From: Henricia sp. BOLD:AAB3569
Taxonomy: Eukaryota > Echinodermata > Asteroidea > Spinulosida > Echinasteridae
Assembly: GCA_037783545.1 (NCBI GenBank)
Contig: JBBELK010000509.1
Span: forward strand, 372,001-436,000
Direction of reading: 5' to 3'
Length of the DNA: 64,000 nt
The notes beneath the pieces are model-generated. The model did not search any database. It had not been told where the DNA came from and was given only the letters and a program-made list of their open reading frames with translations. The first letter of the stretch is position 1. Each line of letters opens with the position of its first letter. Shown here one piece after another: positions 40,903-64,000 of the stretch. The position numbers and the translations under genes are program-made.

Positions 40903-40970
40903 ACTTTTGTTTTTAGTAAAATATTGTTCTTCGGTAAACATTTAAAATTACGCAAACCTGTTAAGCATTC

Positions 40971-41070
40971 GTCTACGACCATACCACATTGAATACACCG
41001 GTTCCCGTCTGATCACCGCAGTTAAGCAACGTTGGGCTCGGTCAGTACTTCGGTGGGAGACCACCTGGAA
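40971..41070 (+). pseudogene. 3'-truncated 5S rRNA gene at the array edge
   Basis: Normal from position 1 through about 98 (CCACCTGG), then the sequence departs into ATGGGCTACGA followed by poly-C. The copy keeps box A, the intermediate element and box C but lacks the 3' strand of helix I and the terminator, so it cannot give normal 5S rRNA. The spacer before it is ordinary apart from AACATTT for AACGTTT. It marks either the true right edge of the array or an assembly junction at the adjacent homopolymer. Confidence 0.9.
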
Positions 41071-41081
41071 ATGGGCTACGA

Positions 41082-41104
41082 CCCCCCCCCCCCCCCCCCC
41101 CCCC
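41082..41104. repeat. Poly-C tract of 23 bases
   Basis: An uninterrupted run of 23 C lies 12 bases after the end of the truncated 5S gene. Such a run is difficult to sequence, and its placement at a junction makes the join less certain. Confidence 0.95.
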
Positions 41105-44068: not shown

Positions 44069-44617
44069 TGGGCCAGTCACAAATCAGTTGCGATGCGTCG
44101 GCGATGGGTAAAACCGGGAAATTTGAACAAAATCTTGAGACAGATCTCACGATTTTGCACCCGTCGGAGGCGCTCTCCGGACGCCTGCGGCTTGTCGCAG
44201 ATTTTTTTGGCATCGCCACACCCGTCGCGGTCCCCAACTTTGAACTTAAAATTGTAAGATTGCTCGCAAGATTTTTCACCCATTTTGGGCATCCCAGACA
44301 CAATCTCTGATGACCTACGATGCCCTCCGATTAATCGGAGGCGTCCTCCGAATAATCTGAGACTAGTCGCAAGATTCTGTGTGGGATTGGAAATTCAGGT
44401 TGAGATTCAATGTCTGCGAGTGGTCTCCGGCGCCCTCCGACTGAATCGGAGGCGCCCTGCGACGATTCGTACGCTTTCTGTGATCGTCTCCGACGAATCG
44501 TACGGTGGAATCGTAGTAAATCGCCGTGTATATAAGGGCGCCTCCGATCGGATCGCTAAAAGTTTGAGACGCTCTTGCTGCAGGAGGCTGTGACAGAAGA
44601 TTTTGAAGATTTTGAAG
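44069..44617. promoter_or_regulatory. Left end of Harbinger: TIR, subterminal palindromes, TATA box
   Basis: After the TIR, GTCGGCGAT occurs near both element ends. A perfect 18-bp palindrome spans 44324-44341 (CCTCCGATT / AATCGGAGG). A second imperfect one lies at 44429-44456 (GGCGCCCTCCGA / TCGGAGGCGCC), followed by CGATTCGTACG and CGACGAATCGTACG. The core TCGGAGGCG recurs at the right end. TATATAAG at 44529-44536 lies about 85 bp before the MADF gene's ATG and is the likely core promoter. These are candidate binding sites for the element's own proteins, inferred from position and symmetry. Confidence 0.65.
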
Positions 44618-46731
44618 ATGCCAAGGGGAGGACCAAGGGGAGGAGGCAGGGGAGGAGGCAGAGGAGGAGGCAGAGGAGGAGGAAAGGGGAAAGCAGGAGG
44701 CAGGGGGAAGGCAAAAAACAGGCAGCCAGAGACCCCAGAAGAGGAGCAGGCTCCCCCAGAGGTGCAGGATCAGGAGAGTGGAGACAGATCTGAGGAGCAG
44801 GAAGAGGTTCTAGAGAGGCCTGATGCCAGTCACCATGAGGAGGAGGAGGAGGATGATGGAGTTGTGCAGGATGATGGAGAAGCATGGGACAGGGAGAGGC
44901 AAGCTGCAGAGGAGAAGATCGCCGATTTCTATGAGGCACGTCCCTATTTCTTCGACAAGCGCCATGATCTCTACAAAAACAAGAAGAAACAAAGGTCTGA
45001 ACTGGCAAAACTCTCACAGGAGCTCGGGGGAATCTACAAACGTAAGTTCCAAATTGTTACAATTTTTTCTGTATATATTTTCATGTATATATTTTGTTTT
45101 GTATATTGAAATGTACTTTTTGTACTCATTAATAATGAAATGTACTTAATTGTTTTTCTCTTCTTCTGTATGTTACAGCTGACTACATTGACACCAGGAA
45201 AAGAAGTAACAGGACTGATTATGGGAAGTTGCTGGAAAAGGTGAAGAATAGCAAGAGCGGCTCGGGAACTGCTGGGTTAACTGCTGTGCAGAAATGGAAG
45301 CTCCGGAGGTGGAGTTTTGTGGAGCCCTACATCAAGAAACGCAAGCAGAGCAAGTCAGCAGAGCTTGGCCAGGTAAGCATTTGCAATACTGCAGATTATC
45401 CCTTATTATCCTTCCTTATTCTTATCCCTCTTATCCCTTTTTGCTAGTATGGCTTCTTATCCACATACAGGACTTTATAACTAATATTTGTCTTGCAAAT
45501 CTGTTGTATTGCTTATGCTTAGGTGCAGCGGAGTTCTGCAGGATCATTCAGTACACAGAGAGCTGATGAGGAGGAAGAGGAGGGTGATGGTGATGACCTG
45601 GCTGAGCCCTCCCCCAGCACCAACACCGCTGTCCGCTCCACCCAACCAGCCAGCAAGAAGGCCAAGAAGAGCCCAGGGGACCTGGCTTCAGTCCTCTCAG
45701 AGTACCTTGCCCAGAGCAGGAAGGAGCAGGAAGCGGTGAACGCCCAGGTAATTATATGTTACTGTTGTTGTCATGAAATACCATGAAATTGTTTGTTCTT
45801 ATTTCCATATTTCCTTATTTATGCATGACAATAACATGACCATCTTCATCTGTTTCAGTTGAGGGAGATAGTGCAGCCGGAGGCAGAGAACCCCCGCACC
45901 AACTGGGCCAACTGGTTGTCTTCTGTTTGCATGGAGGTGCCGTCGGAGACCTTCCGACAGTTCCAGTCTGAGAGCTTCCAGTTGGCCATGCGGTTTCTGC
46001 CCTCCAGGCCCGTCCCTGCCCCATCTCTCGATGTTCCCCCTCCGCAGAGCCGCCACCAGCAGCAGCAGCAGCAGGCGGCCTCCTCCAGCGGCACCGGCAG
46101 CTACCTCAGCATGCTGACCAGTGGCACAGGGCTGACTTCGCCTGGTCAGCAGCAGCAGCAGCAGCAGCGGGCTCTCCCGCAGATGCAGCAGGCTCCGCTT
46201 CTACAGTATGGCCAGCACCAGCAGCAGCAGCAGCAGACACATCAACCTGTAAGTATAATTTGAACCTTAACAGAATTTTCCAATTGTGTCATATTTTATC
46301 CCATTCACATACAATACTATCTCCTATATACAATACTGTATAACTAATATTTGTCTTCCAAATTTGTCTGATTGCAGATCATCACCCTAGGCCAGCCTGT
46401 TGACGCCATGAGGCCACTCTCAGCCCCTGGGGACATCTTGTCCTTTGCGTACAACACCACCATAGGGGCCTCCAGCTCCAGCTCCAGCTCCAGACCCCCC
46501 TCTGCTGCTCTGGGCGCTCCCCCTTTTGCCCCTGCTCCTGGCCGCTGGTCAACAGAGTCGAACCTCAACATAAGTGGACTGAGTCAGCTGAATGCAAGTC
46601 AGACCAGCAACCCAAGTATCAGCTCCATCCTGTTACAAGGCAACCAGGACATGGATTATGGACTAAACACCCACCCGCTCACACAGGATCGCTCAGGATC
46701 CAACACCCCCACTGCACAGGATAAACAGTGA
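44618..46731 (+). CDS. Harbinger accessory DNA-binding protein (MADF domain), five exons
   Basis: Exons: 44618-45041, 45179-45372, 45523-45747, 45859-46248, 46378-46731; every intron begins GT and ends AG, and the joined frame encodes 528 residues. Start: ATG at 44618, preceded by a TATA box at 44529. Domains: an RG/GGR-rich basic tail (about 1-33), an acidic stretch (about 45-90), a MADF/SANT-like DNA-binding domain (about 98-200, with IADFYEARPYFFD, YKNKKKQ and WSFVEPYI), a Lys/Ser linker, a short conserved block at about 282-325 with the WANWL motif, and a Gln-rich tail from CAG runs. In Harbinger transposons a Myb/SANT-like partner helps bring the transposase to terminal DNA. The polyadenylation signal AATAAA is at 46842. 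Exon limits are inferred by eye. Confidence 0.85.
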
Positions 46732-47462
46732 CCTTTTGTGAACAGAGAACTTTTGTGAACTTTTGTGCCTCTGGCAGGACTGCTGATGTTTTGCGATTAT
46801 GTATTTTTATATTGTTTTGTGTTTGCAAAGAATGACACTGAAATAAAGTCTGGTCTGGTTTGAAATTAATATCATGTGTGACTCCATTTTCATGCCTACA
46901 TACAATTTGTTTTAAAAATAAACTTAGCACATAAACAGTTGCAAATATTATACTTTGAAATAAATAGGTAATATTAAAGAGGTAAAGTTCTTTGGGAAAA
47001 CTTCTTATAATAGCAAATAAAATACTTTATAAATGTGTAACTTTGGATCATTTAATTCTAAAAAATTGTAATTTTAGAAGAGAAGCTTTGCTAGAACTTT
47101 GAATTAAATTAAATATATTTACATTTATAAAGTACTTTATTTGCTATTATAATGTTTTCCCAAAAGAAATTGTAAATTTAGAAGAAGAAGCATTGCTACA
47201 ACTTGGAATAAGATTTAATATATTTATACTCTTCTATTTATTTCATTACATAGAAATTAAAAAAAAAACATAGACAGATATAGACTTCATACCAGAAATT
47301 TAGACTTTATTCATTCATGTAAAGGCAAGAAATATGAAATGAGTCATGAATTATTAACATACAAGACATTATAACTAATATTTTTTTCCAATGAGTCCAT
47401 AATGAGTCCATGTACAAGTACAGAAAATGTCACAAAAGTCACAAATATATACAAAGAGTCCA
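46732..47462. other. Convergent intergenic region of Harbinger
   Basis: This holds the 3' UTRs of both genes. AATAAA for the + gene is at 46842-46847. For the - gene AATAAA reads from 47311 to 47306, about 150 bases past its stop. Between them, AT-rich arms at about 46992-47037 and 47119-47163 form an imperfect inverted repeat (TTGGGAAAAC versus GTTTTCCCAA, and AATAGCAAATAAA versus TTTATTTGCTATT). Direct copies of a block with TTAGAAGA and GCTA follow each arm. No protein gene seen. Confidence 0.7.
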
Positions 47463-48849
47463 TCATCTTTCAAGTGCAGCTTCTTGCCAGGGCACACTCC
47501 CCACAGGGGAATTGTAGTAGTGGCGGAGATATGCACGGAGTTCCTTCCCCTCACGACTGGCCCTTGGACCGCGCCCCTCGTGCTCCACATCTGCCAGCAC
47601 CTCATGACCACGCCAGGCTCCTGGTTGCCCCTCTGGCACCTCAGGGATGTCTGCATTCTGGGCCTGGGGGTACCGGTCCCTCATGATGTTATGGAGGACC
47701 AGCATACCCTTCACCACTGAGATTGCGTTGTCTGGCTCAAGCTGAAGTGGAGTGTGGAGGCACCTCCACCGGGCGGAGAGAATGCCAAACGCATTTTCCA
47801 CCACACGCCGCCCCCTGGAGCACCTGTAGTTGAAGATGTCCTGGCCGTGGTCCAGGTACCTCTGGGCATAGGGCTTGATCATGTACCTGCGCAGAGGGAA
47901 CGCGTCGTCCCCTACCAGGAAGTAGGGGATGTCTCTGTTGTCCCCAGGCAGCGGAGCCGGATCAGGCAGGCCGAGTGTCCCCTCCCTCAGGGCGGGCTCC
48001 AGGTTGGACTCATTGAAGACACCGCAGTCCGACTCAGACCCAGGAGAGCCCACATTGGCCCAGATGAACTTGTAGTTGGCGTCGACGAGCCCAAGGAGGA
48101 TGATGGAGAAGAAGCCCTTGTGGCAGTAGAAGTCGCTGCCACTCTTCTTGGGCTTGACGATCCTCACATGCTTCCCGTCAAGGGCCCCACAGCAGTGGTG
48201 GAAGTTCCACCTGGCGCTGAAGACCCTCTCGACTTCCAGCCACTCAGCAGGGCTGGAGGGGGTAGTGAACTGCTCCTGCCTGTACTCCTCCACTATGGCG
48301 TCACAGACCTGGGGGATGAAGAGGGAGATGGTGTTGTGGGCAACACGGAAGCTGAATGCAAGGCTGTGGTAGGAGTGGCCAGTGGCGAGGAACCTCAGGG
48401 TGATGGCCAACTTCAGACCTGGCTCCAAGGGGGCTCTGTTCCTCACGTCCTTCTGTATCCTGGGCGCCACTCTGGCCAGGAGCTCGTGGAACATCTGAGG
48501 GTCTATTCTGAGGAAGCCCCTGAAACATACAACAGAGACAAATATTAAAGTAAAATGTCTAATATGTTGTACTAAAACATTAATAAAACATTAATAAAGT
48601 CAAACATTTCATACCACATGACATCATATAACATTGCATGAAATGTAAATCAAATTACCTGAAGTCCCCTCTTGCCTCCCTCTCCAGCTCGGCCATCAGC
48701 CTCTCGTACTGGCCGTACAGTGGCCTTCTCAGCAGCCAGGGCCGCACCCACATCTGTCTTGGTCTCCTGCGCCTTCTCTCAGCACGGATCCTCTCCTCCT
48801 CAGCCAGAAGGGCCAGCATCACTGCCTCATCCCTTCTCCTCAGACCCAT
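47463..48849 (-). CDS. PIF/Harbinger DDE transposase (HARBI1-like), two exons
   Basis: Exon 1 is 48849-48659 and exon 2 is 48519-47463, with a 139-bp intron (donor GTAATT, acceptor TTTCAG); the joined frame gives 415 residues. Exon 1 supplies the family N-terminus with WVRPWLLRRP. A helix-turn-helix region lies around residues 100-135. The DDE_Tnp_4 nuclease core shows D178 in GALDGKHV, D228 in PGSESDCGVF and E305 in RRVVENAFGIL, with the GDDAFPL segment near 268. It should cut and rejoin the element's ends in the nucleus. The frame is open upstream of 48849 to 48933 without another ATG, so a longer start through an upstream exon is possible. The long open frame opposite (47754-48548 +) is its shadow. 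Confidence 0.92.
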
Positions 48850-49294
48850 CAGCCTGGCCCTCAACTCTGCAACACGGCCCACAAGGAGCCTCTGGGGCGG
48901 AATCAGCGCCAGCTTCTCTGCAGAGTTGAAATGACTGTTCTATGTACAACCAGATGAGGGATACCACACTACAGTGTACAGGGAGAAATACAGATGACCG
49001 AGGTCAGAAAACCCTCCTTTTCCCCCACATATACCCGGGGGGGGGGGGGGGGGGGGTAAATTAAAAGAAAAGATGCTCGCAGATATCGTCTCCGATGCAA
49101 TCGGAGGCGATCGGAGGCTAATCCCACGATTTTTCGACAAAACCGGGTCAAAATCCTTGAAAAAATCTCAGACAATGTAACTGCTCCACTTTTATTAGGA
49201 TTATTGCTAGGATTGTTCAAGGCTTCTTTATTTTCTACGACGACCCCCCGCCAAAACTAATCCCCGACAGATCGCCGACATTGTGACTGGGCCA
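48850..49294. other. Right end of Harbinger: transposase upstream region and TIR
   Basis: No further gene. Includes a 20-base poly-G (49037-49056), the 17-bp near-palindrome CTCCGATGCAATCGGAG at 49090-49106 followed by GCGATCGGAGG, and GTCGGCGAT (reverse strand) just inside the terminal repeat at 49281-49294. The promoter of the - strand transposase must lie here, but I see no clear TATA box. Confidence 0.65.
49037..49056. repeat. Poly-G tract of 20 bases
   Basis: An uninterrupted run of G inside the right arm of the Harbinger element, between ATACCC and TAAATTAAAAG. It resembles the poly-C tract at the 5S array edge; both are prone to length error. Confidence 0.95.
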
Positions 49295-51049
49295 TAAACA
49301 GAATAAAAATCCAACCCTCTATTCGAATCGCATTTACTCAAATGAAAGTATAAATAAATTAAACGAAGACCTAACTATAGCAGACTGGTCCTCCGTATAT
49401 AATTCTAGTGACGTAAACGAAGCTTACAATCAATTTCATAACATCTTCTGGTGTTCGTACGATAAAAATATACCCCTAAGGAAGTCTAAAAAAAACAAGA
49501 ACAAGCCTAAAGCACCATGGTTAACACAATCCTTATTAAAATCAATTAATCTAAAGAATAAATTATATCGTAAATTTATCGCAAAGCCAAATGAAACCAA
49601 CCACGCTAATTACACCAGGTACAAAAATATATTGACCAATGTATTACGTGCAGCAAAAAAAACAGTATTACCATACTCAGTTTAATAAGGAAAGAGACAA
49701 CATAAAAAATACATGGAATATTATTAACTCAATCCTAAATAGAAACAACTCTAATCAGACTTTGACAACAATGAAAGTAAATGGAAATTCAGTTGATGAT
49801 CCAGCAACAATTGCTCATCACTTTAACAGTTATTTTGCTAACATAGGTCCTAATCTAGCTCACAATATTCCGGACAGTGAAACTGATTTTACAGAATATA
49901 TCTCTGAACCAAATAACAACAGTATGTTTTTAGCTCCCGCAACAAAATATGAGATACGAGATATTGTTATGAATCTTGCTAACAAAACAAGTTGTGGTAT
50001 GGATGGCATTAGCATGGCTACAATTAAAAAAGTTATTGATTCTATTTCTGAACCTCTTACGCATATAATAAATTTATCATTGTCAACTGGTGTTGTTCCT
50101 TCTGATTTAAAGATAGCTAAGGTTATTCCTATATTTAAAAATGGTGAGCCTGACCAATTAGGTAATTATAGACCGATATCGGTGTTACCTAGCTTTTCTA
50201 AAATACTTGAGAAGATTGTTCATATTAGAACTGTAGAGTTTTTGCAGATAAACAATATCTTATCAAATTTTCAATTTGGTTTTAGGTCTAAACACTCAAC
50301 GACTCACGCTATACTTCAGCTATGTAACACAATTACATCTGCATTTGAAAGTTCTAAGCACACTCTGGGTATTTTTCTTGACTTTTCAAAAGCGTTTGAT
50401 ACTCTAGATCATGACATACTTCTTCAAAAACTCTCCCATCATGGCATACGAGGTATTTTTCTTGACTGGTTCAGAAGCTATCTGTCGCAAAGAAAACAAA
50501 GAGTTGTAATTAATGGATACACATCTTCATTTCGTTCGGTAACATGTGGCGTTCCTCAGGGATCAATCCTTGGACCACTTCTTTTTTTAATATACATTAA
50601 CGATTTTACTAAATCTTCAGATATTTTAACATTTATACTTTTTGCCGATGATTCTAACTTATTCTTTAGTCATAAAAATATCTCTACTTTAATAAATGTA
50701 GTCAACAGTGAACTTAAAAATATATCTAACTGGATAAAGGCTAACAAACTATCGTTAAATATTAACAAAACCTGTTGTATGTTATTTAGTAATTCTCTAA
50801 GTAAGTTGCCGATAGACATTTGTATTGAAACTGACAAAATTAACGAAGTTGATAATGTGAAATTCCTGGGCATCTTTATTGACAACAAGCTTTCATGGAA
50901 AACGCATATAGATTATGTATGTAAAATTATCTCAAAAAATATAGGTGTAATTGCCAGACTTAGATCATTTTTACCTCCAAACATTTGTATTATATTGTAT
51001 AACAGTTTGGTTTTGCCTTATATCAACTATGGAATATTAGCCTGGGGCT
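49295..51049 (+). pseudogene. LINE ORF, 3' part: reverse transcriptase, frameshifted and truncated
   Basis: The LINE frame resumes after the TAA duplication (WSSVYNSS, then KAPWLT), shifts by one base in the run of eight A at 49653-49660, and continues to about 51049. The reverse transcriptase motifs are well preserved: NYRPISVLP, FLDFSKAFDTLDHD (about 50378), GVPQGSILGPLLFLIYINDF (about 50552) and the catalytic FADD (about 50641). The ATG at 49639 is incidental, because the protein reads through from upstream. The ORF breaks at SLVLPYINYGILAWG, well short of a usual end, where satellite sequence begins. Losing a LINE's 3' end is not ordinary 5' truncation, so a later break or insertion is implied. 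Confidence 0.88.
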
Positions 51050-51132
51050 ATTTGAAAGTGGTACAAGATATCTGGATGTGGTCAACTGTATTACACTTGG
51101 ACCTAGGGTGGTGTATCCAAAAAATATGGCCG

Positions 51133-51145
51133 TGACCTTTGACCT
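51133..51145. promoter_or_regulatory. DR1 nuclear-receptor type motif (first of about 41)
   Basis: TGACCTTTGACCT is the reverse complement of AGGTCAAAGGTCA, a perfect direct repeat of AGGTCA with one-base spacing. This is the consensus bound by RXR heterodimers, HNF4 and COUP-TF. By eye there are 41 exact copies from here to 63900, plus a few with one change such as TGACCTTGGACCT. Whether any protein binds is not shown. Confidence 0.6.
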
Positions 51146-51149
51146 TGCT

Positions 51150-51173
51150 CACTTCCGGTCGAAACCGGAAGTG
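51150..51173. promoter_or_regulatory. ETS-type palindrome of the B segment
   Basis: Arms CACTTCCGGT and ACCGGAAGTG are separated by CGAA, a perfect 10-bp inverted repeat containing two ETS core sites (CCGGAAGTG). It is unchanged in all 12 B segments, starting near 51150, 52245, 53266, 54292, 55313, 56338, 57473, 57889, 59087, 59502, 62211 and 62617. Confidence 0.65.
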
Positions 51174-52510
51174 GCCCTTAGTTTGAAAGTGAAAGGAGGT
51201 ATTGAGATAGGGTCAATGGTGTTATTACCAGAGGCCCTTAAGCTTTCCAAAAATATAAGTGATGACGTCATCGTAGGAAATAGCGCCCTCTAGCGACAAG
51301 ATGATTACGTAATTAAATATTCAAAAATCAATATAAAATCTACCGTTTGACCTACAAATTTGATTCCTTCTGCATATACGATCACTAACAAATGTCTTTA
51401 AGATGCGCACATGGCTTGACCTTTGACCTCGTTTCCTATTGGTCAAACAGATTTTGCCTTGCCATTTGAAAGGGGTACAATATATCACGATGGGGTCAAC
51501 TGTGTTACACTTCGACTAGGGTGGGGTATCCAAACATATAGCAACACCTTTGACCTTCCCTACATGTCAGATTAAAGTGGCATGTAATAATATTCAATAT
51601 TTAAAAATCGATAAAAACTCAACCGTTTGACATACGATCGTGATTTATTCATATACAATCACTAACAAAGGTCATCCCGAACACCACATATGTTTATAAA
51701 AAGGAGGGGAACAGCCATGTGTTCGTTTTCAACGAACACATTTCTAGTTTTTGGCTGTTCCGATTCGGGTCGGAACAGCCTTTGTTTTCGTTACGGTTTT
51801 TTTTTTTTTTTTTTTTTTTTTTATTCTTTTACTTCTTCCACTTTTTTCAGACGCTATTTCGGACACTTGCACATTGATGATTGACTTCAAACTTCACATG
51901 GACATTGGTCACTATGTGAAGTAGTGCATAGTACTAATGACGTAATCATGACGTCATCACGTGTCAGATTAAAGGGGTATGAAGTTTAATAAATTAAATA
52001 TTCAAAAATCAATAAAAAATCAACCGTTTGACCTACGATCTTGATTCCTTCGGCATATACGATGACTAACAAAGGTCTTTGAGATGCGCACACCCCTTGA
52101 CCTTTGACCTCGTTTCCTATTGGTCTAACAGATTTTGACTTGCCATTTGAAAGTGGTGCAAGATATTTGGACAAAGTCACTTGTGTTACACTTCGACTAG
52201 GGTGGGGTATCTAAAAAATATTTTTGTGACCTTTGACCTTGCTCACTTCCGGTCGAAACCGGAAGTGGCCCTTAGTTTGAAAGTGGTAGGAGGTATTGAG
52301 ATGGGGTCAATGGTGTTATTATCAGAGGCCCTTAAGCTTTCCAAAAATATAAGTAATGACGTCATCGTACGAAATAGCGCCCTCTAGCGACAAGATGATT
52401 ACGTAATTAAATATTCAAAAATCAATATAAAATCTACCGTTTGACCTACGAATTTGATTCCTTCTGCATATACGATCATTAACAAATGTCTTTAAGATGC
52501 GCACATGGCT

Positions 52511-55500
52511 TGACCTTTGACCTCGTTTCCTATTGGTCAAACAGATTTTGCCTTGCCATTTGAAAGGGGTACAATATACCACGATGGGGTCAACTGTGTT
52601 ACACTTCGACTAGGGTGGGGTATCCAAACATATAGCAACACCTTTGACTTTCCCTACATGTCAGATTAAAGGGGCATGTAATAATATTCAATATTTAAAA
52701 ATAGATAAAAACTCAACCGTTTGACCTACGATCGTGATTTATTCATATACGATCACTAACAAAGGTCATCCCGAACACCATATATGTTTATAAAAAGGAG
52801 GGGAACAGCCATGTGTTCGTTTTCAACGAACACATTTCTAGTTTATTCTTTTCCTTCTTCCATTTTTTTCAGACGCTATTTCGGACACTTGCACATTGAT
52901 GATTGACTTCAAACTTCACATGGACATTGGTCACTATGTGAAGTTGTGCACAGTACTAATGACGTCATGATGACGTCATCACGTGTCAGATTAAAGGGGT
53001 ATGAAGTTTAATAAATTAAATATTCAAAAATCAATAAAAAATCAACCGTTTGACCTACGATCTTGATTCCTTCGGCATATACGATGACTAACAAAGGTCT
53101 TTGAGATGCGCACACCCCTTGACCTTTGACCTCGTTTCCTATTGGTCAAACAGATTTTGCCTTGCCATTTGAAAGTGGTGCAAGATATTTGGACAAAGTC
53201 ACTTGTGTTACACTTCGACTAGGGTGGGGTATCTAAAAAAAAAATTTGTGACCTTTGACCTTGCTCACTTCCGGTCGAAACCGGAAGTGGCCCTTAGTTT
53301 GAAAGTGGTAGGAGGTATTGAGATGGGCTCAATGGTGTTATTATCAGAGGCCCTTAAGCTTTCCAAAAATATAAGTGATGACGTCATCGTACGAAATAGC
53401 GCCCTCTAGCGACAAGATGATTACGTAATGAAATATTGGAAAATCAATAAAAAATCAACCGTTTGACCTACGATCTTGATTCCTTCGGCATATACGATGA
53501 CTAACAAAGGTCTTTGAGATGCGCACACCCCTTGACCTTTGACCTCGTTTCCTATTGGTCTAACAGATTTTGCCTTGCCATTTGAAAGGGGTACAATATA
53601 CCACGATGGGGTCAACTGTGTTACACTTCGACTAGGGTGGGGTATCCAAACATATAGCAACACCTTTGACTTTCCCTACATGTCAGATTAAAGGGGCATG
53701 TAATAATATTCAATATTTAAAAATAGATAAAAACTCAACCGTTTGACCTACGATCGTGATTTCTTCATAAACAATCACTAACAAAGGTCATCCCGAACAC
53801 CACATATGTTTATAAAAAGGAGGGGAACAGCCATGTGTTCGTTTTCAACGAACACATTTCTAGTTTTTTATTCTTTTACTTCTTCCACTTTTTTCAGACG
53901 CTATTTCGGACACTTGCACATTGATGATTGACTTCAAACTTTACATGGACATTGGTCACTATGTGAATTAGTGCATAGTACTAATGACGTAATCATGACG
54001 TCATCACGTGTCAGATTAAAGGGGTATGAAGTTTAATAAATTAAATATTCAAAAATCAATAAAAATTCAACCGTTTGACCTACGATCTTGATTCCTTCGC
54101 CATATACGATGACTAACAAAAGTCTTTAAGATGCGCACACGCCTTGACCTTTGACCTCGTTTCCTATTGGTCAAACAGATTTTGCCTTGCCATTTGAAAG
54201 TGGTGCAAGATATTTGGACAAGGTCACTTGTGTTACACTTCGACTAGGGTGGGGTATCTAAAAAATATTTTTGTGACCTTTGACCTTGCTCACTTCCGGT
54301 CGAAACCGGAAGTGGCCCTTAGTTTGAAAGTGGTAGGAGGTATTGAGATGGGCTCAATGGTGTTATTATCAGAGGCCCTTAAGCTTTCCAAAAATATAAG
54401 TGATGACGTCATCGTACGAAATAGCGCCCTCTAGCGACAAGATGATTACGTAATGAAATATTGGAAAATCAATAAAAAATCAACCGTTTGACCTACGATC
54501 TTGATTCCTTCGGCATATACGATGACTAACAAAGGTCTTTGAGATGCGCACACCCCTTGACCTTTGACCTCGTTTCCTATTGGTCTAACAGATTTTGCCT
54601 TGCCATTTGAAAGGGGTACAATATACCACGATGGGGTCAACTGTGTTACACTTCGACTAGGGTGGGGTATCCAAACATATAGCAACACCTTTGACTTTCC
54701 CTACATGTCAGATTAAAGGGCATGTAATAATATTCAATATTTAAAAATAGATAAAAACTCAACCGTTTGACCTACGATCGTGATTTATTCATATACGATC
54801 ACTAACAAAGGTCATCCCGAACACCATATATGTTTATAAAAAGGAGGGGAACAGCCATGTGTTCGTTTTCAACGAACACATTTCTAGTTTATTCTTTTCC
54901 TTCTTCCATTTTTTTCAGACGCTATTTCGGACACTTGCACATTGATGATTGACTTCAAACTTCACATGGACATTGGTCACTATGTGAAGTTGTGCACAGT
55001 ACTAATGACGTCATGATGACGTCATCACGTGTCAGATTAAAGGGGTATGAAGTTTAATAAATTAAATATTCAAAAATCAATAAAAAATCAACCGTTTGAC
55101 CTACGATCTTGATTCCTTCGGCATATACGATGACTAACAAAGGTCTTTGAGATGCGCACACCCCTTGACCTTTGACCTCGTTTCCTATTGGTCAAACAGA
55201 TTTTGCCTTGCCATTTGAAAGTGGTGCAAGATATTTGGACAAAGTCACTTGTGTTACACTTCGACTAGGGTGGGGTATCTAAAAAAAAAATTTGTGACCT
55301 TTGACCTTGCTCACTTCCGGTCGAAACCGGAAGTGGCCCTTAGTTTGAAAGTGGTAGGAGGTATTGAGATGGGCTCAATGGTGTTATTATCAGAGGCCCT
55401 TAAGCTTTCCAAAAATATAAGTGATGACGTCATCGTACGAAATAGCGCCCTCTAGCGACAAGATGATTACGTAATGAAATATTGGAAAATCAATAAAAAA

Positions 55501-56604
55501 TCAACCGTTTGACCTACGATCTTGATTCCTTCGGCATATACGATGACTAACAAAGGTCTTTGAGATGCGCACACCCCTTGACCTTTGACCTCGTTTCCTA
55601 TTGGTCTAACAGATTTTGCCTTGCCATTTGAAAGGGGTACAATATACCACGATGGGGTCAACTGTGTTACACTTCGACTAGGGTGGGGTATCCAAACATA
55701 TAGCAACACCTTTGACTTTCCCTACATGTCAGATTAAAGGGGCATGTAATAATATTCAATATTTAAAAATAGATAAAAACTCAACCGTTTGACCTACGAT
55801 CGTGATTTCTTCATAAACAATCACTAACAAAGGTCATCCCGAACACCACATATGTTTATAAAAAGGAGGGGAACAGCCATGTGTTCGTTTTCAACGAACA
55901 CATTTCTAGTTTTTTATTCTTTTACTTCTTCCACTTTTTTCAGACGCTATTTCGGACACTTGCACATTGATGATTGACTTCAAACTTTACATGGACATTG
56001 GTCACTATGTGAATTAGTGCATAGTACTAATGACGTAATCATGACGTCATCACGTGTCAGATTAAAGGGGTATGAAGTTTAATAAATTAAATATTCAAAA
56101 ATCAATAAAAATTCAACCGTTTGACCTACGATCTTGATTCCTTCGCCATATACGATGACTAACAAAAGTCTTTAAGATGCGCACACGCCTTGACCTTTGA
56201 CCTCGTTTCCTATTGGTCAAACAGATTTTGCCTTGCCATTTGAAAGTGGTGCAAGATATTTGGACAAGGTCACTTGTGTTACACTTCGACTAGGGTGGGG
56301 TATCTAAAAAATATTTTTGTGACCTTTGACCTTGCTCACTTCCGGTCGAAACCGGAAGTGGCCCTTAGTTTGAAAGTGGTAGGAGGTATTGAGATGGGCT
56401 CAATGGTGTTATTATCAGAGGCCCTTAAGCTTTCCAAAAATATAAGTGATGACGTCATCGTACGAAATAGCGCCCTCTAGCGACAAGATGATTACGTAAT
56501 GAAATATTGGAAAATCAATAAAAAATCAACCGTTTGACCTACGATCTTGATTCCTTCGGCATATACGATGACTAACAAAGGTCTTTGAGATGCGCACACC
56601 CCTT
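52511..56604. repeat. Higher-order satellite repeat of about 2,046 bp, two copies
   Basis: A pair of modules (long plus 413 bp, about 1,022 bp, followed by a second slightly different pair of about 1,025 bp) is repeated almost without change. Matching landmarks at 53203 and 55249, and at 54228 and 56274, are both 2,046 bp apart. Markers of the first pair (CACCATATATG) and the second (TTCATAAACAATC) alternate. This is a recent duplication inside the satellite. Confidence 0.85.
52960..52985. promoter_or_regulatory. CRE and E-box cluster in the long module
   Basis: Two full CRE palindromes TGACGTCA (52960-52967 and 52971-52978) are followed at once by the E-box CACGTG (52980-52985). Long modules have either two CREs, or TGACGTAA plus one CRE, before the same E-box. 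The B segment has a further TGACGTCA. Binding is inferred from consensus only. Confidence 0.5.
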
Positions 56605-58445
56605 GACCTTTGACCTCGTTTCCTATTGGTCTAACAGATTTTGCCTTGCCATTTGAAAGGGGTACAATATACCACGATGGGGTCAACTGTGTTACACTTC
56701 GACTAGGGTGGGGTATCCAAACATATAGCAACACCTTTGACTTTCCCTACATGTCAGATTAAAGGGCATGTAATAATATTCAATATTTAAAAATAGATAA
56801 AAACTCAACCGTTTGACCTACGATCGTGATTTCTTCATAAACAATCACTAACAAAGGTCATCCCGAACACCACATATGTTTATAAAAAGGAGGGGAACAG
56901 CCATGTGTTCGTTTTCAACGAACACATTTCTAGTTTTCGTTACGATTTTTATTCCTTTTTTTTTTTTTTTGGGCTGTTCCAACACGGTTGGGAACAGCCT
57001 TTGTTTTCGTTAAGATTTTTTTTATTTTTTATTTTTTTTATTTTTATTTTTTTCTTTTCCTTCTTCCATTTTTTTCAGACGCTATTTCGGGCACTTGCAC
57101 ATTGATGATTGACTGCAAACTTCACATGGACATTGGTCACTATGTGAAGTAGTGCATAGTACTAATGACGTAATCATGACGTCATCACGTGTCAGATTAA
57201 AGGGGTATGAAGTTTAATAAATTAAATATTCAAAAATCAATAAAAATTCAACCGTTTGACCTACGATCTTGATTCCTTCGCCATATACGATGACTAACAA
57301 AAGTCTTTAAGATGCGCACACGCCTTGACCTTTGACCTCGTTTCCTATTGGTCAAACAGATTTTGCCTTGCCATTTGAAAGTGGTGCAAGATATTTGGAC
57401 AAAGTCACTTGTGTTACACTTCGACTAGGGTGGGGTATCTAAAAAATATGTTGGTGACCTTTGACCTTGCTCACTTCCGGTCGAAACCGGAAGTGGCCCT
57501 TAGTTTGAAAGTGAAAGGAGGTATTGAGATGGGGTCAATGGTGTTATTACCAGAGGCCCTTAAGCTTTCCAAAAATATAAGTGATGACGTCATCGTACGA
57601 AATAGCGCCCTCTACCGACAAGATGATTACGTAATTAAATATTCAAAAATCAATAAAAAATCAACTGTTTGACCTACGATCTTGATTCCTGTGGCATATA
57701 CGATCACTAACAAATGTCTTTAAGATGCGCACAGGGCTTGACCTTTGACCTCGTTTCCTATTGGTCTAACAGATTTTGCCTTGCCATTTGAAAGTGGTAC
57801 AAGATATCTGGATGTGGTCAACTGTATTACACTTGGACCTAGGGTGGTGTATCCAAAAAATATGGTCGTGACCTTTGACCTTGCTCACTTCCGGTCGAAA
57901 CCGGAAGTGGCCCTTAGTTTGTAAGTGAAAGGGGGTATTGAGATGTGGTCAATGGTGTTATTACCAGAGGCCCTTAACCTTTCCAAAAATATAAGTGATG
58001 ACGTTATCATACGAAATAGCGCCCTCTAGCGACAAGATGATTACGTAATTAAATATTAAAAAATCAATAAAAAATCTACTGTTTGACCTACGAATTTGAT
58101 TCCTTCTGCATATACGATCACTAACAAATGTCTTTAAGATGCGCACATGGCTTGACCTTTGACCTCGTTTCCTATTGGTCAAACAGATTTTGCCTTTCCA
58201 TTTGAAAGGGGTACAATATATCACGATGGGGTCAACTGTGTTACACTTCGACTAGGGTGGGGGTATCCAGACATATAGCAACACCTTTGACCTTCCCTAC
58301 ATGTCAGATTAAAGGGGCATGTAATAATATTCAATATTTAAAAATCCATAAAAACTCAACCGTTTGACCTACGATCGTGATTTCTTCATATACGATCACT
58401 AACAAAGGTCATCCCGAACACAATATATGTTTATAAAAAGGAGGG

Positions 58446-58665
58446 GAACAGCCATGTGTTCGTTGTCAAGAACGAACACAGGTCTAGTTGGCTGTTCCGA
58501 TACGGTCGGAACAGCCTTTGTTTTCGTTACGATAATTTTTGGCTGTTCCGATTCGGGTCGGAACAGCCTTTGTTTTCGTTCCGATTTTTTTTTCTTTTTG
58601 GCTGTTCCGATACGGTCGGAACAGCCTTTGTTTTCGTTAAGATTTTTTTTTTTTTTTTTTTTTTT
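58446..58665. repeat. Hairpin island with three tandem inverted repeats
   Basis: Three hairpins with arms GGCTGTTCCGA and TCGGAACAGCC at 58490-58516, 58541-58568 and 58600-58626 are separated by TTTGTTTTCGTT-type linkers and followed by a long T run. A preceding hairpin has arms TGTGTTCGTT and AACGAACACA (58455-58480), and GGAACAGCC just before it can also pair with GGCTGTTCC. Other long modules hold one copy (51751-51780, 56970-56998) or none. Confidence 0.8.
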
Positions 58666-60402
58666 ATTCTTTTCCTTCTTCCACTTTTTTCAGACGCTAT
58701 TTCGGACACTTGCACATTGATGATTGACTTCAAACTGCACATGGACATTGGTCACTATGTGAAGTTGTGCACAGTACTAATGACGTCATGATGACGTCAT
58801 CACGTGTCAGATTAAAGGGGTATGAAGTTTAATAAATTAAATATTGGAAAATCAATAAAAAATCAACCGTTTGACCTACGATCTTGATTCCTTCGGCATA
58901 TACGATGACTAATAAAGGTCTTTGAGATGCGCACACCCCTTGACCTTTGACCTCGTTTCCTATTGGTCTAACAGATTTTGCCTTGCCATTTGAAAGTGGT
59001 GCAAGATATTTGGACAAAGTCACTTGTGTTACACTTCGACTAGGGTGGGGTATCTAAAAAATATTTTTGTGACCTTTGACCTTGCTCACTTCCGGTCGAA
59101 ACCGGAAGTGGCCCTTAGTTTGAAAGTGAAAGGAGGTATTGAGATGGGGTCAATGGTGTTATTACCAGAGGCCCTTAAGCTTTCCAAAAATATAAGTGAT
59201 GACGTCATCGTACGAAATAGCGCCCTCTACCGACAAGATGATTACGTAATTAAATATTCAAAAATCAATAAAAAATCAACTGTTTGACCTACGATCTTGA
59301 TTCCTGTGGCATATACGATCACTAACAAATGTCTTTAAGATGCGCACAGGGCTTGACCTTTGACCTCGTTTCCTATTGGTCTAACAGATTTTGCCTTGCC
59401 ATTTGAAAGTGGTACAAGATATCTGGATGTGGTCAACTGTATTACACTTGGACCTAGGGTGGTGTATCCAAAAAATATGGCCGTGACCTTTGACCTTGCT
59501 CACTTCCGGTCGAAACCGGAAGTGGCCCTTAGTTTGAAAGTGAAAGGAGGTATTGAGATAGGGTCAATGGTGTTATTACCAGAGGCCCTTAAGCTTTCCA
59601 AAAATATAAGTGATGACGTCATCGTACGAAATAGCGCCCTCTAGCGACAAGATGATTACGTAATGAAATATTGGAAAATCAATAAAAAATCTACCGTTTG
59701 ACCTACAAATTTGATTCCTTCTGCATATACGATCACTAACAAATGTCTTTAAGATGCGCACATGGCTTGACCTTTGACCTCGTTTCCTATTGGTCAAACA
59801 GATTTTGCCTTGCCATTTGAAAGGGGTACAATATATCACGATGGGGTCAACTGTGTTACACTTCGACTAGGGTGGGGGTATCCAAACATATATCAACACC
59901 TTTGACCTTCCCTACATGTCAGATTAAAGTGGCATGTAATAATATTCAATATTTGAAAATCGATAAAAACTCAACCGTTTGACATACGATCGTGATTTAT
60001 TCATATACAATCACTAACAAAGGTCATCCCGAACACCACATATGTTTATAAAAAGGAGGGGAACAGCCATGTGTTCGTTTTCAACGAACACATTTCTAGT
60101 TTTTCTTTTTTTTCTTTTTGTTCTTTTCCTTCTTCCACTTTTTTCAGACGCTATTTCGGGCACTTGCACATTCATGATTGACTTCAAACTTCACATGGAC
60201 ATTGGTCACTATGTGAAGTTGTGCACAGCACTAATGACGTCATGATGACGTCATCACGTGTCAGATTAAAGGGGCATGAAGTTTAATAAATTAAATATTC
60301 AAAAATCATTAAAAAATCAACCGTTTGACCTACGATCTTGATTCCTTCGCCATATACGATGACTAACAAGGGTCTTTGAGATGCGCACACCCCTTGACCT
60401 TG

Positions 60403-61467
60403 GACCTCGTTTCCTATTGGTCAAACAGATTTTGCCTTGCCATTTGAAAGTGTTACAAGATATCTGGATGTGGTCAACTGTATTACACTTGGACATAGGG
60501 TGGTGTATCCCAAAAATTATGGTCGTGACCTTTGACCTCGTTTCCTATTGGTCTAACAGATTTTGCCTTGCCATTTGAAAGTGGTACAAGATATCTGCAT
60601 GTGGTCAACTGTATTACACTTGGACCTAGGGTGGTGTATCCAAAAAATATGGTCGTGACCTTTGACCTCGTTTCCTATTGGTCTAACAGATTTTGCCTTG
60701 CCATTTGAAAGTGGTACAAGATATGTGCATGTGGTCAACTGTATTACACTTGGACCTAGGGTGGTGTATCCAAAAAATATGGTCGTGACCTTTGACCTCG
60801 TTTCCTATTGGTCTAACAGATTTTGCCTTGCCATTTGAAAGTGTTACAAGATATCTGGATGTGGTCAACTGTATTACACTTGGACCTAGGGTGGTGTATC
60901 CAAAAAATATGGTCGTGACCTTTGACCTCGTTTCCTATTGGTCTAACAGATTTTGCCTTGCCATTTGAAAGTGGTACAAGATATCTGCATGTGGTCAACT
61001 GTATTACACTTGGACCTAGGGTGGTGTATCCAAAAAATATGGTCGTGACCTTTGACCTCGTTTCCTATTGGTCTAACAGATTTTGCCTTGCCATTTGAAA
61101 GTGGTACAAGATATGTGCATGTGGTCAACTGTATTACACTTGGATCTAGGGTGGTGTATCCAAAAAATATGGTCGTGACCTTTGACCTCGTTTCCTATTG
61201 GTCTAACAGATTTTGCCTTGCCATTTGAAAGTGGTACAAGATATCTGCATGTGGTCAACTGTATTACACTTTGACCTAGGGTGGTGTATCCAAAAAATAT
61301 GGTCGTGACCTTTGACCTCGGTTCCTATTGGTCTAACAGATTTTGCCTTGCCATTTGAAAGTGGTACAAGATATGTGCATGTGGTCAACGGTATTACACT
61401 TGGACCTAGGGTGGTGTATCCAAAAAATATGGTCATGACATTTGACCTCGTTTCCTATTGGTCTAAC
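60403..61467. repeat. 130-bp tandem repeat block (about eight copies)
   Basis: Period 130 bp, copies nearly identical. Variants alternate between ATATCTGCATG, ATATGTGCATG and ATATCTGGATG. Each unit is the satellite core with the B segment missing, joined exactly at TGACCTTTGACCT. The block passes into a long module near 61480. Confidence 0.92.
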
Positions 61468-63505
61468 AGATTTTGCCTTGCCATTTGAAAGGGGTACAAT
61501 ATATCACGATGGGGTCAACTGTGTTACACTTCGACTAGGGTGGGGTATCCAAACATATAGCAACACCTTTGACCTGTACATGTCAGATTAAAGGGGCATG
61601 TAATAATATTCAAAATTTAAAAATCGATAAAAACTCAACCGTTTGACATACGATCGTGATTTCTTCATATACGATCACTAACAAAGGTCATCCTGAACAC
61701 CATATATGTTTATAAAAAGGAGGGGAACAGCCATGTGTTCGTTGTCAAGAACGAACACAGGTCTAGTTTTTTTTCTTTTTTTTCTTTTTCTTCTTCCACT
61801 TTTTTCAGACGCTTTTTCGGGCACTTGCACATTCATGATTGACTTCAAACTCCACATGGACATTGGTCACTATGTGAAGTTGTGCATAGTACTAATGACG
61901 TAATCATGACGTCATCACGTGTCAGATTAAAGGGGTATGAAGTTTAATAAATTAAATATTCAAAAATCAATAAAAATTCAACCGTTTGACCTACGATCTT
62001 GATTCCTTCGCCATATACGATGACTAACAAAAGTCTTTAAGATGCGCACACGCCTTGACCTTTGACCTCGTTTCCTATTGGTCAAACAGATTTTGCCTTG
62101 CCATTTGAAAGTGGTGCAAGATATTTGGACAAAGTCGCTTGTGTTACACTTCGACTAGGGTGGGGTATCTAAAAAATATGTTGGTGACCTTTGACCTTGC
62201 TCACTTCCGGTCGAAACCGGAAGTGGCCCTTAGTTTGAAAGTGAAAGGAGGTATTGAGATGGAGTCAATGGTGTTATTACCAGAGGCCCTTAAGCTTTCC
62301 AAAAATATAAGTGATGACGTCATCGTACGAAATAGCGCCCTCTACCGACAAGATGATTACGTAATGAAATATTGGAAAATCAATACAAAATCAACCGTTT
62401 GACCTACGATCTTGATTCCTTCGCCATATACGATGATTAACAAGGGTCTTTGAGATGCGCACACCCCTTGACCTTGGACCTCGTTTCCTATTGGTCAAAC
62501 AGATTTTGCCTTGCCATTTGAAAGTGGTACAAGATATCTGGATGTGGTCAACTGTATTACACTTAGACCTAGGGTGGTGTATCCAAAAAATATGGTCGTG
62601 ACCTTTGACCTTGCTCACTTCCGGTCGAAACCGGAAGTGGCCCTTAATTTGAAAGTGGTAGGAGGTATTGAGATGGGGTCAATGGTGTTATTATCAGAGG
62701 CCCTTAAGCTTTCCAAAAATATAAGAGATGACGTCATCGTACGAAATAGCGCCCTCTAGCGACAAGATGATTACGTAATTAAATATTTAAAAATCAATAA
62801 AAAATCTACCGTTTGACCTACGAAATTGATTCCTTCTGCATATACGATCACTAACAAATGTCTTTAAGATGCGCACATGGCTTGACCTTTGACCTCGTTT
62901 CCTATTGGTCAAACAGATTTTGCCTTTCCATTTGAAAGGGGTACAATATATCACGATGGGGTCAACTGTGTTACACTTCGACTAGGGTGGGGTATCCAAA
63001 CATATATCAACACCTTTGACCTTCCCTACATGTCAGATTAAAGGGGCATGTAATAATATTCAATATTTAAAAATCGATAAAAACTCAACCGTTTGACATA
63101 CGATCGTGATTTCTTCATATACAATCACTAACAAAGGTCATCCCGAACAACACATATGTTTATAAAAAGGAGGGGAACAGCCATGTGTTCGTTGTCAAGA
63201 ACGAACACAGGTCTAGTTTTAATTCTTTTCCTTCTTCCACTTTTTTCAGACGCTATTTCGGACACTTGCACATTTATGATTGACTTCAAACTTCACATGG
63301 ACATTGGTCACTATGTGAAGTTGTGCACAGTACTAATGACGTCATGATGACGTCATCACGTGTCAGATTAAAGGGGCATAAAGTTTAATAAATTAAATAT
63401 TCAAAAATCATTAAAAAATCAACCGTTTGACCTACAATCTTGATTCCTTCGCCATATACGATGACTAACAAGGGTCTTTGAGATGCGCACACCCCTTGAC
63501 CTTGG

Positions 63506-64000
63506 ACCTCATTTCCTGTTGGTCAAACAGATTCTGCCTTGCCATTTGAAAGTGTTACAAGATATCTGGATGTGGTCAACTGTATTACACTTGGACCTAG
63601 GGTGGTGTATCCAAAAAATATGGTCGTGACCTTTGACCTCGTTTCCTATTGGTCTAACAGATTTTGCCTTGCCATTTGAAAGTGGTACAAGATATCTGCA
63701 TGTGGTCAACTGTATTACACTTGGACCTAGGGTGGTGTATACAAAAAATATGGTCGTGACCTTTGACCTCGTTTCCTATTGGTCTAACAGATTTTGCCTT
63801 GCCATTTGAAAGTGGTACAAGATATCTGCATGTGGTCAACTGTATTATACTTCGACCTAGGGTGGTGTATCCAAAAAATGTGGTCGTGACCTTTGACCTC
63901 GTTTCCTATTGGTCTAACAGATTTTGTCTTGCCATTTGAAAGTGGTACAATATATCTGCATGTGGTCAACTGTATTACACTTGGACCTAGGGTGGTGTAT
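63506..64000. repeat. Second 130-bp tandem repeat block, cut by the window edge
   Basis: The same 130-bp units as at 60403-61467; about 3.8 copies are visible and the block continues out of the window. It is preceded by the same long-module end, with the variant DR1 TGACCTTGGACCT, as the first block, so the two blocks probably share one origin by duplication. Confidence 0.9.

What the first reader, a model, noticed from the sequence alone, without database searches (positions are those of the whole stretch)
51133..63900. About 41 perfect DR1 (AGGTCAAAGGTCA) sites in 13 kb of satellite
The exact 13-bp nuclear-receptor DR1 consensus appears roughly every 300 bp and is kept in every module type while neighbouring bases vary. 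A dense DR1 array could act as a sink for HNF4, RXR or COUP-TF type factors, recruit them as an enhancer or heterochromatin nucleator, or simply reflect the founder sequence.
Basis: partly seen in the sequence, partly recalled or inferred. Interest (0 to 1): 0.7.

Follow-up and report, generated by a model that had tools for sequence, protein, structure and literature searches.

The report
Receptor-motif repeats carried by mobile element
A stretch of repetitive animal DNA that carries the same nuclear-receptor binding motif 41 times is a head-to-tail row of copies of a small jumping element, a family that accounts for most of the roughly twenty thousand such motifs in this genome; whether any receptor binds them is untested.

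Summary
This is not an independent satellite but a head-to-tail array of a ~1.0-1.7 kb non-autonomous Helentron (HINE-type rolling-circle transposon): 5' hairpin GGCTGTTCC..GGAACAGCC and T-rich tract, central 130/284/414-bp repeats carrying DR1, then GGAACAGCC, palindrome and CTAG. Uninterrupted paralogous sites show insertion at TT or in a T tract. Genome-wide there are 19,949 exact DR1s against 24 for the reversed motif; at least 14,807 lie in this family. DR1 is kept somewhat better than most columns in most comparisons, but not exceptionally: 9-13% of 13-column windows do as well. It is also the joint where unlike modules meet, and in diverged relatives 2 of 8 homologous sites are intact. 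HNF4 and COUP-TF DNA-binding domains are encoded in the genome. Most likely the DR1s are founder sequence amplified with the element, perhaps weakly constrained. Sink, enhancer or heterochromatin roles are untested.

The parts
51047..64000 (+). Head-to-tail array of the DR1-carrying non-autonomous Helentron (HINE-type): one 5'-truncated unit, nine complete bodies (5 of 1015-1016 bp, then 1434, 1431, 1644, 1433 bp) and a last unit cut by the window end
   Evidence: BLAST coverage, unit ends and starts; continues in L027/L028
51133..63899 (-). 41 exact DR1 sites AGGTCAAAGGTCA (29 in A-cells followed by CGTTTCCTATTGG-type sequence, 12 in B-cells followed by TGCTCACTTCCGG, read on the + strand)
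   Evidence: the 29/12 split is printed before that script failed; contexts
51047..51747 (+). First unit, 5'-truncated; abuts the LINE fragment in mid A-cell
51753..51780 (+). 5'-end hairpin GGCTGTTCC-GATTCGGGTC-GGAACAGCC (subTIR plus complementary inverted repeat), followed by TTTGTTTTCGTTACG and a T-rich tract
51826..52841 (+). First complete element body: CTT..CTTCTTCCACTTTTTTCAGACGCT ... central cells ... GGGGAACAGCC-palindrome-CTAG
52098..52226 (+). Example A-cell (129 bp): DR1, CCTATTGG (CCAAT box on the other strand)
52227..52510 (+). Example B-cell (284 bp): DR1, palindromic double ETS-like site CACTTCCGGTCGAAACCGGAAGTG, CRE TGACGTCA, CTCF-like GCGCCCTCTAGCG
52787..52841 (+). 3' end of one unit: TTTATAAAAAGG, subTIR GGAACAGCC, palindrome TGTTCGTT..AACGAACA, CTAG
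58490..58626 (+). Three 5'-end hairpins in a row (58490-58516, 58541-58568, 58600-58626) inside the array
43009..51046 (+). Flanking context: LINE with PHD finger, endonuclease and reverse transcriptase, truncated where the array begins and split by a PIF/Harbinger element (44069-49294)
   Evidence: Pfam PF00628, PF14529 (just over its cut-off), PF00078, PF13359; ORFs; ends read by eye

Best explanation
The array is a tandem row of a non-autonomous Helentron (HINE-type rolling-circle transposon). The DR1 sites are part of its central repeats and were multiplied with it in three ways: transposition of whole ~1-1.7 kb units to T-rich sites, head-to-tail multiplication of whole units, and internal duplication of 130/284/414-bp cells, in which the 13-bp DR1 is the stretch shared by unlike cells and so the likely point of unequal exchange. 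Shown here: both element ends, their pairing in single copies, insertion at TT or in a T tract with uninterrupted paralogous sites, the genome-wide copy number, and DR1 as the joint between module types. Inferred: mobilisation by one of the genome's own autonomous RepHel elements, exchange at DR1, and that DR1 was in the founder and is now mainly a passenger with at most modest constraint. Binding by HNF4, COUP-TF or RXR is possible on sequence grounds but untested.
For: Ends: 44 of 48 3'-end matches in the window and fetched loci end in CTAG, and all 44 are followed by TT; 70 matches to 5' hairpins, i.e. about 35 sites, since the palindrome matches on both strands. Genome-wide: 2,930 exact copies of the 3'-end 19-mer and 2,372 matches of the directional 5'-end pattern. 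Of the 100 listed 3' ends (of 2,930) I count 26 clusters (18 of 2-13 units, 8 single); 7 of the 8 single ones have a 5' hairpin 0.96-1.66 kb away in the right orientation, the eighth (C8:1209626) has none listed. Empty sites: the two flanks of the C2:327-335k array align next to each other, overlapping by TT, at 3 uninterrupted places (one in L014, two in L015), with a fourth where only 40 bases of the 5' flank align; these are copies about 2.35 kb apart of one local repeat. The flanks of the C1:852k copy align 4 bases apart within a T tract in L022. No ORF over 111 aa in the array. Possible autonomous partners: 150 Helitron_like_N matches scored of 173 candidates, many in frames over 3,000 aa; 3 kb upstream of one, in the same open frame, holds an OTU domain. 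DR1 as joint: of 247 sampled sites that begin TGACCT and have at most 1 mismatch, three left/right combinations account for 114, 69 and 51.
Against: The subTIR is only 9-10 bp identical, shorter than the 11-15 bp given for described HINEs. No autonomous element's termini were reached, so mobilisation is not shown. Only two insertions could be checked for empty sites, and the TT overlap in the first could also be read as a 2-bp duplication. DR1 conservation is slightly above average in most comparisons (not exact A-cells), which leaves room for selection on DR1 itself. Tandem multiplication of whole units is inferred from the end result.
Confidence: 0.78

Rival explanations
1. The DR1s are selected working parts of the element: the central cells are an enhancer-like cassette (DR1, CRE, double ETS, CCAAT, CTCF-like) that keeps the element in open germ-line chromatin or drives transcription, and the host may reuse it as in Alu/HNF4 or the Drosophila ISX element.
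For: One 1016-bp unit holds 3 DR1, 3 CRE, 2 ETS and 1 CTCF-like motif where 2,000 dinucleotide shuffles average 0.011 or fewer each; AGGTCA half-sites number 10 against 0.53. DR1 is better kept than average in most comparisons: 13 of 13 identical between one A and one B cell that are 60% identical in the following 93 columns; 60 of 65 bases in five diverged cells with 72-86% identity outside; 2,961 of 3,066 against 2,715 of 3,066 in B-cells. HNF4 and COUP-TF DNA-binding domains exist.
Against: Ranks are only in the top 9-13% of windows. In A-cells exact DR1 is kept less often than its neighbour (11,846 against 12,169). The A/B comparison also shows another identical run of 12 (TTTGAAAGTGGT), so DR1 is not unique. 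In diverged relatives 2 of 8 homologous sites are intact and one is deleted. TATAAAAR and CACGTG are not enriched (shares 0.16), nor are AP1, SP1, NRF1, TAATTA or GATA-type motifs; the motif list was recalled and chosen after reading the sequence. A DNA transposon without genes needs no transcription of its own.
Confidence: 0.2
2. Dense DR1 arrays act as a sink for HNF4, COUP-TF or RXR, or nucleate heterochromatin.
For: 19,949 exact DR1 sites in the assembled genome. The idea has been raised for HNF4-Alu sites (PMC3252374, section 14 read).
Against: The same section estimates ~225,000 HNF4 dimers per hepatocyte nucleus and judges 7,000-46,000 accessible Alu sites too few to matter in a normal cell, while allowing that it could matter if accessibility or protein level changed. 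No protein, chromatin or expression data exist here.
Confidence: 0.04
3. DR1 identity is preserved mainly because it is the recombination seam: unequal exchange and gene conversion between cells run through the stretch they share.
For: DR1 sits at the left edge of A/B homology: right arms are related (score 7.0 against a shuffled maximum of 3.0), left arms are not (score -14.0 against a shuffled mean of -10.6) (one unit). The 130-bp rows are joints of the left arm that normally precedes B with the right arm of A, 51 of 247 sites.
Against: Exchange in longer shared tracts could give the same joints; seam use is inferred from end products, and DR1 identity could be cause or consequence.
Confidence: 0.3
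4. It is a classical stand-alone satellite, unrelated to any transposon.
For: Long tandem arrays, at least about 33 kb here.
Against: Element ends, single copies with both ends, and empty sites.
Confidence: 0.02

Closest known systems
Cg_HINE elements of Crassostrea gigas (PMC7492417; abstract and outline, sections 7 and 9, and part 1 of 2 of section 10 read)
   Same: Satellite-like repeats are the central repeats of non-autonomous Helentrons with 5' subTIR plus complementary inverted repeat, a microsatellite, 3' subTIR, a palindrome, T-rich/TT insertion and no target-site duplication
   Different: Here whole elements also stand head to tail in long arrays (not described in the parts I read); the 5' hairpin can be repeated (11 matches in a row at C8:630386-631047); the repeats carry DR1/CRE/ETS motifs; the subTIR is shorter (9-10 bp against 11-12)
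DINE-1 and HINE-Mo Helentron derivatives (PMC4067079; 12 passages found by term only)
   Same: subTIRs, 3' palindrome, T-rich insertion, terminal Ts of varying number, tandem repeats in some copies
   Different: Different sequence; autonomous partners were identified there and not here
ISX element of Drosophila miranda dispersing binding sites of the dosage compensation complex (PMC4384637; abstract and outline read; that ISX derives from a Helitron is recalled)
   Same: A mobile element that spreads copies of one protein-binding motif
   Different: Binding and selection were shown there; nothing of the kind is shown here
HNF4 sites in Alu repeats (PMC3252374; abstract, outline and section 14 read)
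   Same: A repeat family that disperses HNF4-type sites genome-wide; sink hypothesis discussed
   Different: Alu is a SINE and the abstract speaks of low affinity sites; here the sites are perfect DR1 in a rolling-circle element

Membership tests
HINE (non-autonomous Helentron) | No coding capacity | tested here: met
   No ORF over 111 aa at 51200-64000
HINE (non-autonomous Helentron) | 5' subTIR with complementary inverted repeat, followed by a microsatellite | tested here: met
   GGCTGTTCC + 9-10 nt + GGAACAGCC, then TTTGTTTTCGTTA and a T-rich tract; the tract is T-rich rather than a 4-nt microsatellite
HINE (non-autonomous Helentron) | 3' subTIR matching the 5' one in inverted orientation, 11 bp or more | tested here: inconclusive
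   GGAACAGCC stands before the 3' palindrome in all 10 window units, but the identical stretch is 9-10 bp
HINE (non-autonomous Helentron) | Palindrome near the 3' terminus | tested here: met
   TGTTCGTT..AACGAACA; 44 of 48 matches then end in CTAG
HINE (non-autonomous Helentron) | Insertion at TT or in T-rich sequence without target-site duplication | tested here: met
   One insertion with TT overlap against three full and one partial uninterrupted copies of a local repeat, one within a T tract; small sample, and a 2-bp TT duplication cannot be told from terminal Ts of the element
HINE (non-autonomous Helentron) | Autonomous Helentron partner sharing the termini | tested here: inconclusive
   RepHel matches are abundant and one frame has an OTU domain, but no partner termini were read
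Canonical Helitron (Helitron1) | 5'-TC, 3'-CTRR after a hairpin, insertion between A and T (recalled) | tested here: not met
   3' hairpin plus CTAG is present, but the 5' end is GGCTGTTCC after Ts and insertion is at TT or in a T tract
Functional nuclear-receptor response element | Receptor occupancy or DR1-dependent activity | not testable with these tools
   Sequence only; HNF4 and COUP-TF DNA-binding domains are encoded
Functional nuclear-receptor response element | DR1 more conserved than neighbouring sequence | tested here: inconclusive
   Modest excess in most comparisons, reversed for exact A-cells, not exceptional

The most novel reading that the evidence does not exclude
A rolling-circle transposon has seeded this genome with some fifteen to twenty thousand perfect DR1 sites inside a conserved enhancer-like cassette (DR1, CRE, double ETS, CTCF-like), which is kept by selection and bound by HNF4 or COUP-TF type receptors, opening chromatin for the element and rewiring host regulation on a scale beyond the ISX case.
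Probability: 0.1. Interest if true: 0.8.

Novelty: new member of a known kind. Interest (0 to 1): 0.38.

Why it matters
It shows how a transposon can make what looks like a binding-site satellite, and gives a ready natural experiment: thousands of near-identical perfect DR1 copies, some single and some in long arrays, in a genome that also encodes HNF4 and COUP-TF. One CUT&RUN or ATAC data set would tell whether such copies are bound, ignored or silenced.

Tried and rejected
Classical satellite: rejected after element ends, single copies and empty sites were found. Retroelement LTR or LINE 5'-UTR monomers: considered because of the TATA-like and splice-acceptor-like stretches; dropped because of the rolling-circle ends, because TATA is not enriched in a unit (share 0.16), and because no TATA-like stretch is seen at the 3' end of the diverged L018 copy (read). 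Canonical Helitron: first suggested by hairpin plus CTAG; rejected by the 5' end and T-T insertion. Identifying the autonomous partner by its termini: not reached. Comparing RepHel positions with the listed 3' ends on C3, C7 and C8 by eye gave no shared element; only those three contigs were compared. Empty sites were sought for four arrays or copies: two gave them; the flanks of the C1:556-574k array had no paralog in the fetched loci; for C2:364-372k the script picked a wrong 3' flank, which I saw only on checking, so that array was not tested. The first alignment of A, B and fourth cells was spoiled by overlapping sequence and was redone. A paper search for satellite DNA + nuclear receptor + binding sites + sink found nothing; searches gave listings from which no paper was read. 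Species identity was not determined.

Rows dropped before counts: only nhmmer hits covering at least 70% of the model were kept (169 of 256 A, 66 of 326 B), and duplicates were collapsed to 100 and 46 distinct; L001-L008 were left out because they overlap other loci. One search tallied only sites beginning TGACCT. In one search only alignments of the native cell type with the full DR1 in the model line were counted, and the deleted site is outside its 60/65; two further broken B-cell sites (L018 ~6714, L026 ~551), visible, are also outside it.
Full report
Observation. The pattern AGGTCAAAGGTCA occurs exactly 41 times in the window, all on the minus strand between 51133 and 63899, and never in 100 dinucleotide shuffles. 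The spacings are 129/130, 284 and 414 bp plus longer steps of 608-788 bp. Other homologous positions hold near misses: 3 TGACCTTGGACCT, 1 TGACATTTGACCT and 10 degenerate fourth sites, so 41 of 55 are perfect.

Surroundings. Bases 1-41072 are a 5S rDNA array, about 220 copies of 186 bp (the six copies in the part scanned, 40000-41083, are called 5S rRNA). Then follows a LINE (PHD, endonuclease and reverse transcriptase domains), split by a PIF/Harbinger element (DDE_Tnp_4) and cut off at 51046, where the DR1 array starts in the middle of a cell. The array runs on for at least 20 kb beyond the window.

Genome-wide scale. The exact DR1 occurs 19,949 times (10,899 + 9,050), against 24 for the pattern read backwards. 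Intact A-cell sites with the exact 15-bp right flank number 11,846 and intact B-cell sites with the exact 23-bp right flank number 2,961. Thus at least 74% of all exact DR1s belong to this family. A minority lie elsewhere: of seven listed sites inspected outside this family on C1 and C2 (L019-L021, L023-L026), two share an unrelated repeat (L020, L025) and one is in another tandem repeat (L024).

What it is. Units of the array have a 3' end made of GGAACAGCC, a palindrome (TGTTCGTT..AACGAACA) and CTAG; 44 of 48 such matches in the window and fetched loci end in CTAG, each followed by TT. The 5' end is the hairpin GGCTGTTCC..GGAACAGCC followed by TTTGTTTTCGTTA and a T-rich tract; within arrays many units lack the hairpin (window: 5 hairpins, 10 body starts). 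Complete bodies in the window are five of 1015-1016 bp and then 1434, 1431, 1644 and 1433 bp. Genome-wide there are 2,930 exact 3'-end 19-mers and 2,372 matches of the 5'-end pattern. Among the 100 listed 3' ends I count 26 clusters: 18 tandem clusters of 2-13 units and 8 single copies; 7 of the 8 single copies have a 5' hairpin 0.96-1.66 kb away in the right orientation, one has none listed.

Mobility. The 120-bp flanks of the array at C2:327-335k align side by side, overlapping by TT, at three uninterrupted places (one in L014, two in L015); at a fourth only 40 bases of the 5' flank align. The four are about 2.35 kb apart and are copies of one local repeat, so they attest one insertion. The flanks of the copy at C1:852k align 4 bases apart in L022, within the T tract of another hairpin-ended repeat. 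So insertion is at TT or in a T tract, with no longer duplication; the TT may belong to the element, as described for Helentrons. The hairpin, T-rich tract, central repeats, subterminal repeat, palindrome and TT insertion are the features listed for HINE elements, the non-autonomous Helentrons, in PMC4067079 (passages) and PMC7492417 (sections 7 and 9). The subterminal repeat is shorter than usual (9-10 bp). The genome holds 150 scored Helitron_like_N matches, many in frames above 3,000 aa; 3 kb upstream of one, in the same open frame, has an OTU domain and a Herpes_teg_N match. I could not read element ends there, so the partner is not identified.

Is DR1 specially conserved? In 169 A-cells and 66 B-cells from the window and from sampled C1, C2 and C509 loci, DR1 columns have identity 0.978 and 0.995 against 0.927 and 0.949 overall. 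Counting changes on trees built without the DR1 columns, DR1 has 14 changes (A; 100 distinct) and 3 (B; 46 distinct). Of 13-column windows, 12.9% and 8.8% do as well or better; of random sets of 13 non-CpG columns, 20% and 9.6%. Genome-wide, given an intact right anchor, A-cells keep exact DR1 in 11,846 of 13,434 (88.2%), DR1 with T or G at the subfamily site in 12,661 (94.2%), and the next 13 bases on the other side of the anchor (one ambiguous site allowed) in 12,169 (90.6%). B-cells keep DR1 in 2,961 of 3,066 (96.6%) and the next 13 bases in 2,715 (88.6%); only one control 13-mer was counted for each. Between the related right arms of one A and one B cell, DR1 is identical while the following 93 columns are 60% identical, with another identical run of 12; the left arms are unrelated. 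In diverged relatives, DR1 bases match in 60 of 65 in five cells with 72-86% identity outside, two of them fully intact; a sixth cell has DR1 deleted, and two more are broken, so 2 of 8 sites are intact. Copies are related by recent amplification and are not independent, so the counts overstate the evidence. The fair reading is a fairly consistent but modest excess of conservation.

DR1 as a joint. Among 247 sampled sites that begin TGACCT and have at most one mismatch, three combinations of left and right neighbours account for 114, 69 and 51. The 51 join the left arm that normally precedes a B-cell to an A-cell and form the 130-bp rows. DR1 is therefore the stretch at which unlike modules meet. 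This explains why it appears in every module type while neighbours differ, without needing receptor binding. That exchange took place at DR1 is inference.

Possible regulation. One 1016-bp unit has 3 DR1, 3 TGACGTCA, 2 CCGGAAGTG and 1 CTCF-like core where 2,000 shuffles average 0.011 or fewer; AGGTCA half-sites (10 against 0.53), a CCAAT-type site (share 0.012) and ACAAAG (share 0.0105) are also in excess; TATAAAAR, CACGTG and GATA-type sites are not, and AP1, SP1, NRF1 and TAATTA motifs are absent. The motif list is recalled and was chosen after reading the sequence. Two receptor DNA-binding domains translated from the genome match HNF4-alpha (3cbb, E 8.4e-43) and COUP-TF1 (2ebl, E 1.4e-44) best among solved structures; 74 zf-C4 matches were found in all, of which 20 pieces were fetched and two tested. 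So two trans-factors exist, but no occupancy or expression data are at hand. The sink idea has a precedent for HNF4 and Alu, whose authors judged it unlikely in a normal hepatocyte (PMC3252374, section 14).

Verdict. The kind is known (Cg_HINE, DINE-1; TE-borne receptor sites in Alu; ISX, recalled to be Helitron-derived). The family and the scale of perfect DR1 dispersal are new to me: the paper searches listed no report of DR1 in a Helitron or Helentron (listings only; one search had 1,361 hits, of which 10 were listed).

Noticed in passing
window 1-41072: 5S rDNA tandem array of about 220 copies of a 186-bp unit
   Followed up: partly
window 44069-49294: PIF/Harbinger element (DDE_Tnp_4 on -, split Gly/Gln-rich ORFs on +) inside a LINE, apparently flanked by TAA with TIR TGGGCCAGTCACAA (read by eye)
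   Followed up: partly
window 41082-41104 and 49037-49056: C run directly after the last 5S copy and G run within the Harbinger element
   Followed up: no
G000:C480:926278-927627: Fragments of a nuclear-receptor zf-C4 exon repeated seven times at about 167-bp spacing, next to a fuller copy
   Followed up: no
G000:C8:630386-631047: Eleven 5'-end hairpins of the element in a row at the 5' edge of one array; how they multiply is unexplained
   Followed up: no
L020 and L025: Unrelated repeat family that also carries one perfect DR1; L024 has a third, tandem, repeat with DR1
   Followed up: partly
L022 (C1:848001-858000): Another hairpin-ended (AGGTGATCGG..CCGATCACCT) element family with a related 5' body holding TGACGTCA sites; the DR1 element is inserted in its T-rich tract
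   Followed up: partly
each unit, e.g. window 52787-52841: TATA-like TTTATAAAAAGG starting about 54 bp before the 3' terminus and pointing outward, and TTTTTTCAGACGC (splice-acceptor-like) near the 5' end, 10 of each in the window; could form a promoter across head-to-tail joints, not tested
   Followed up: no
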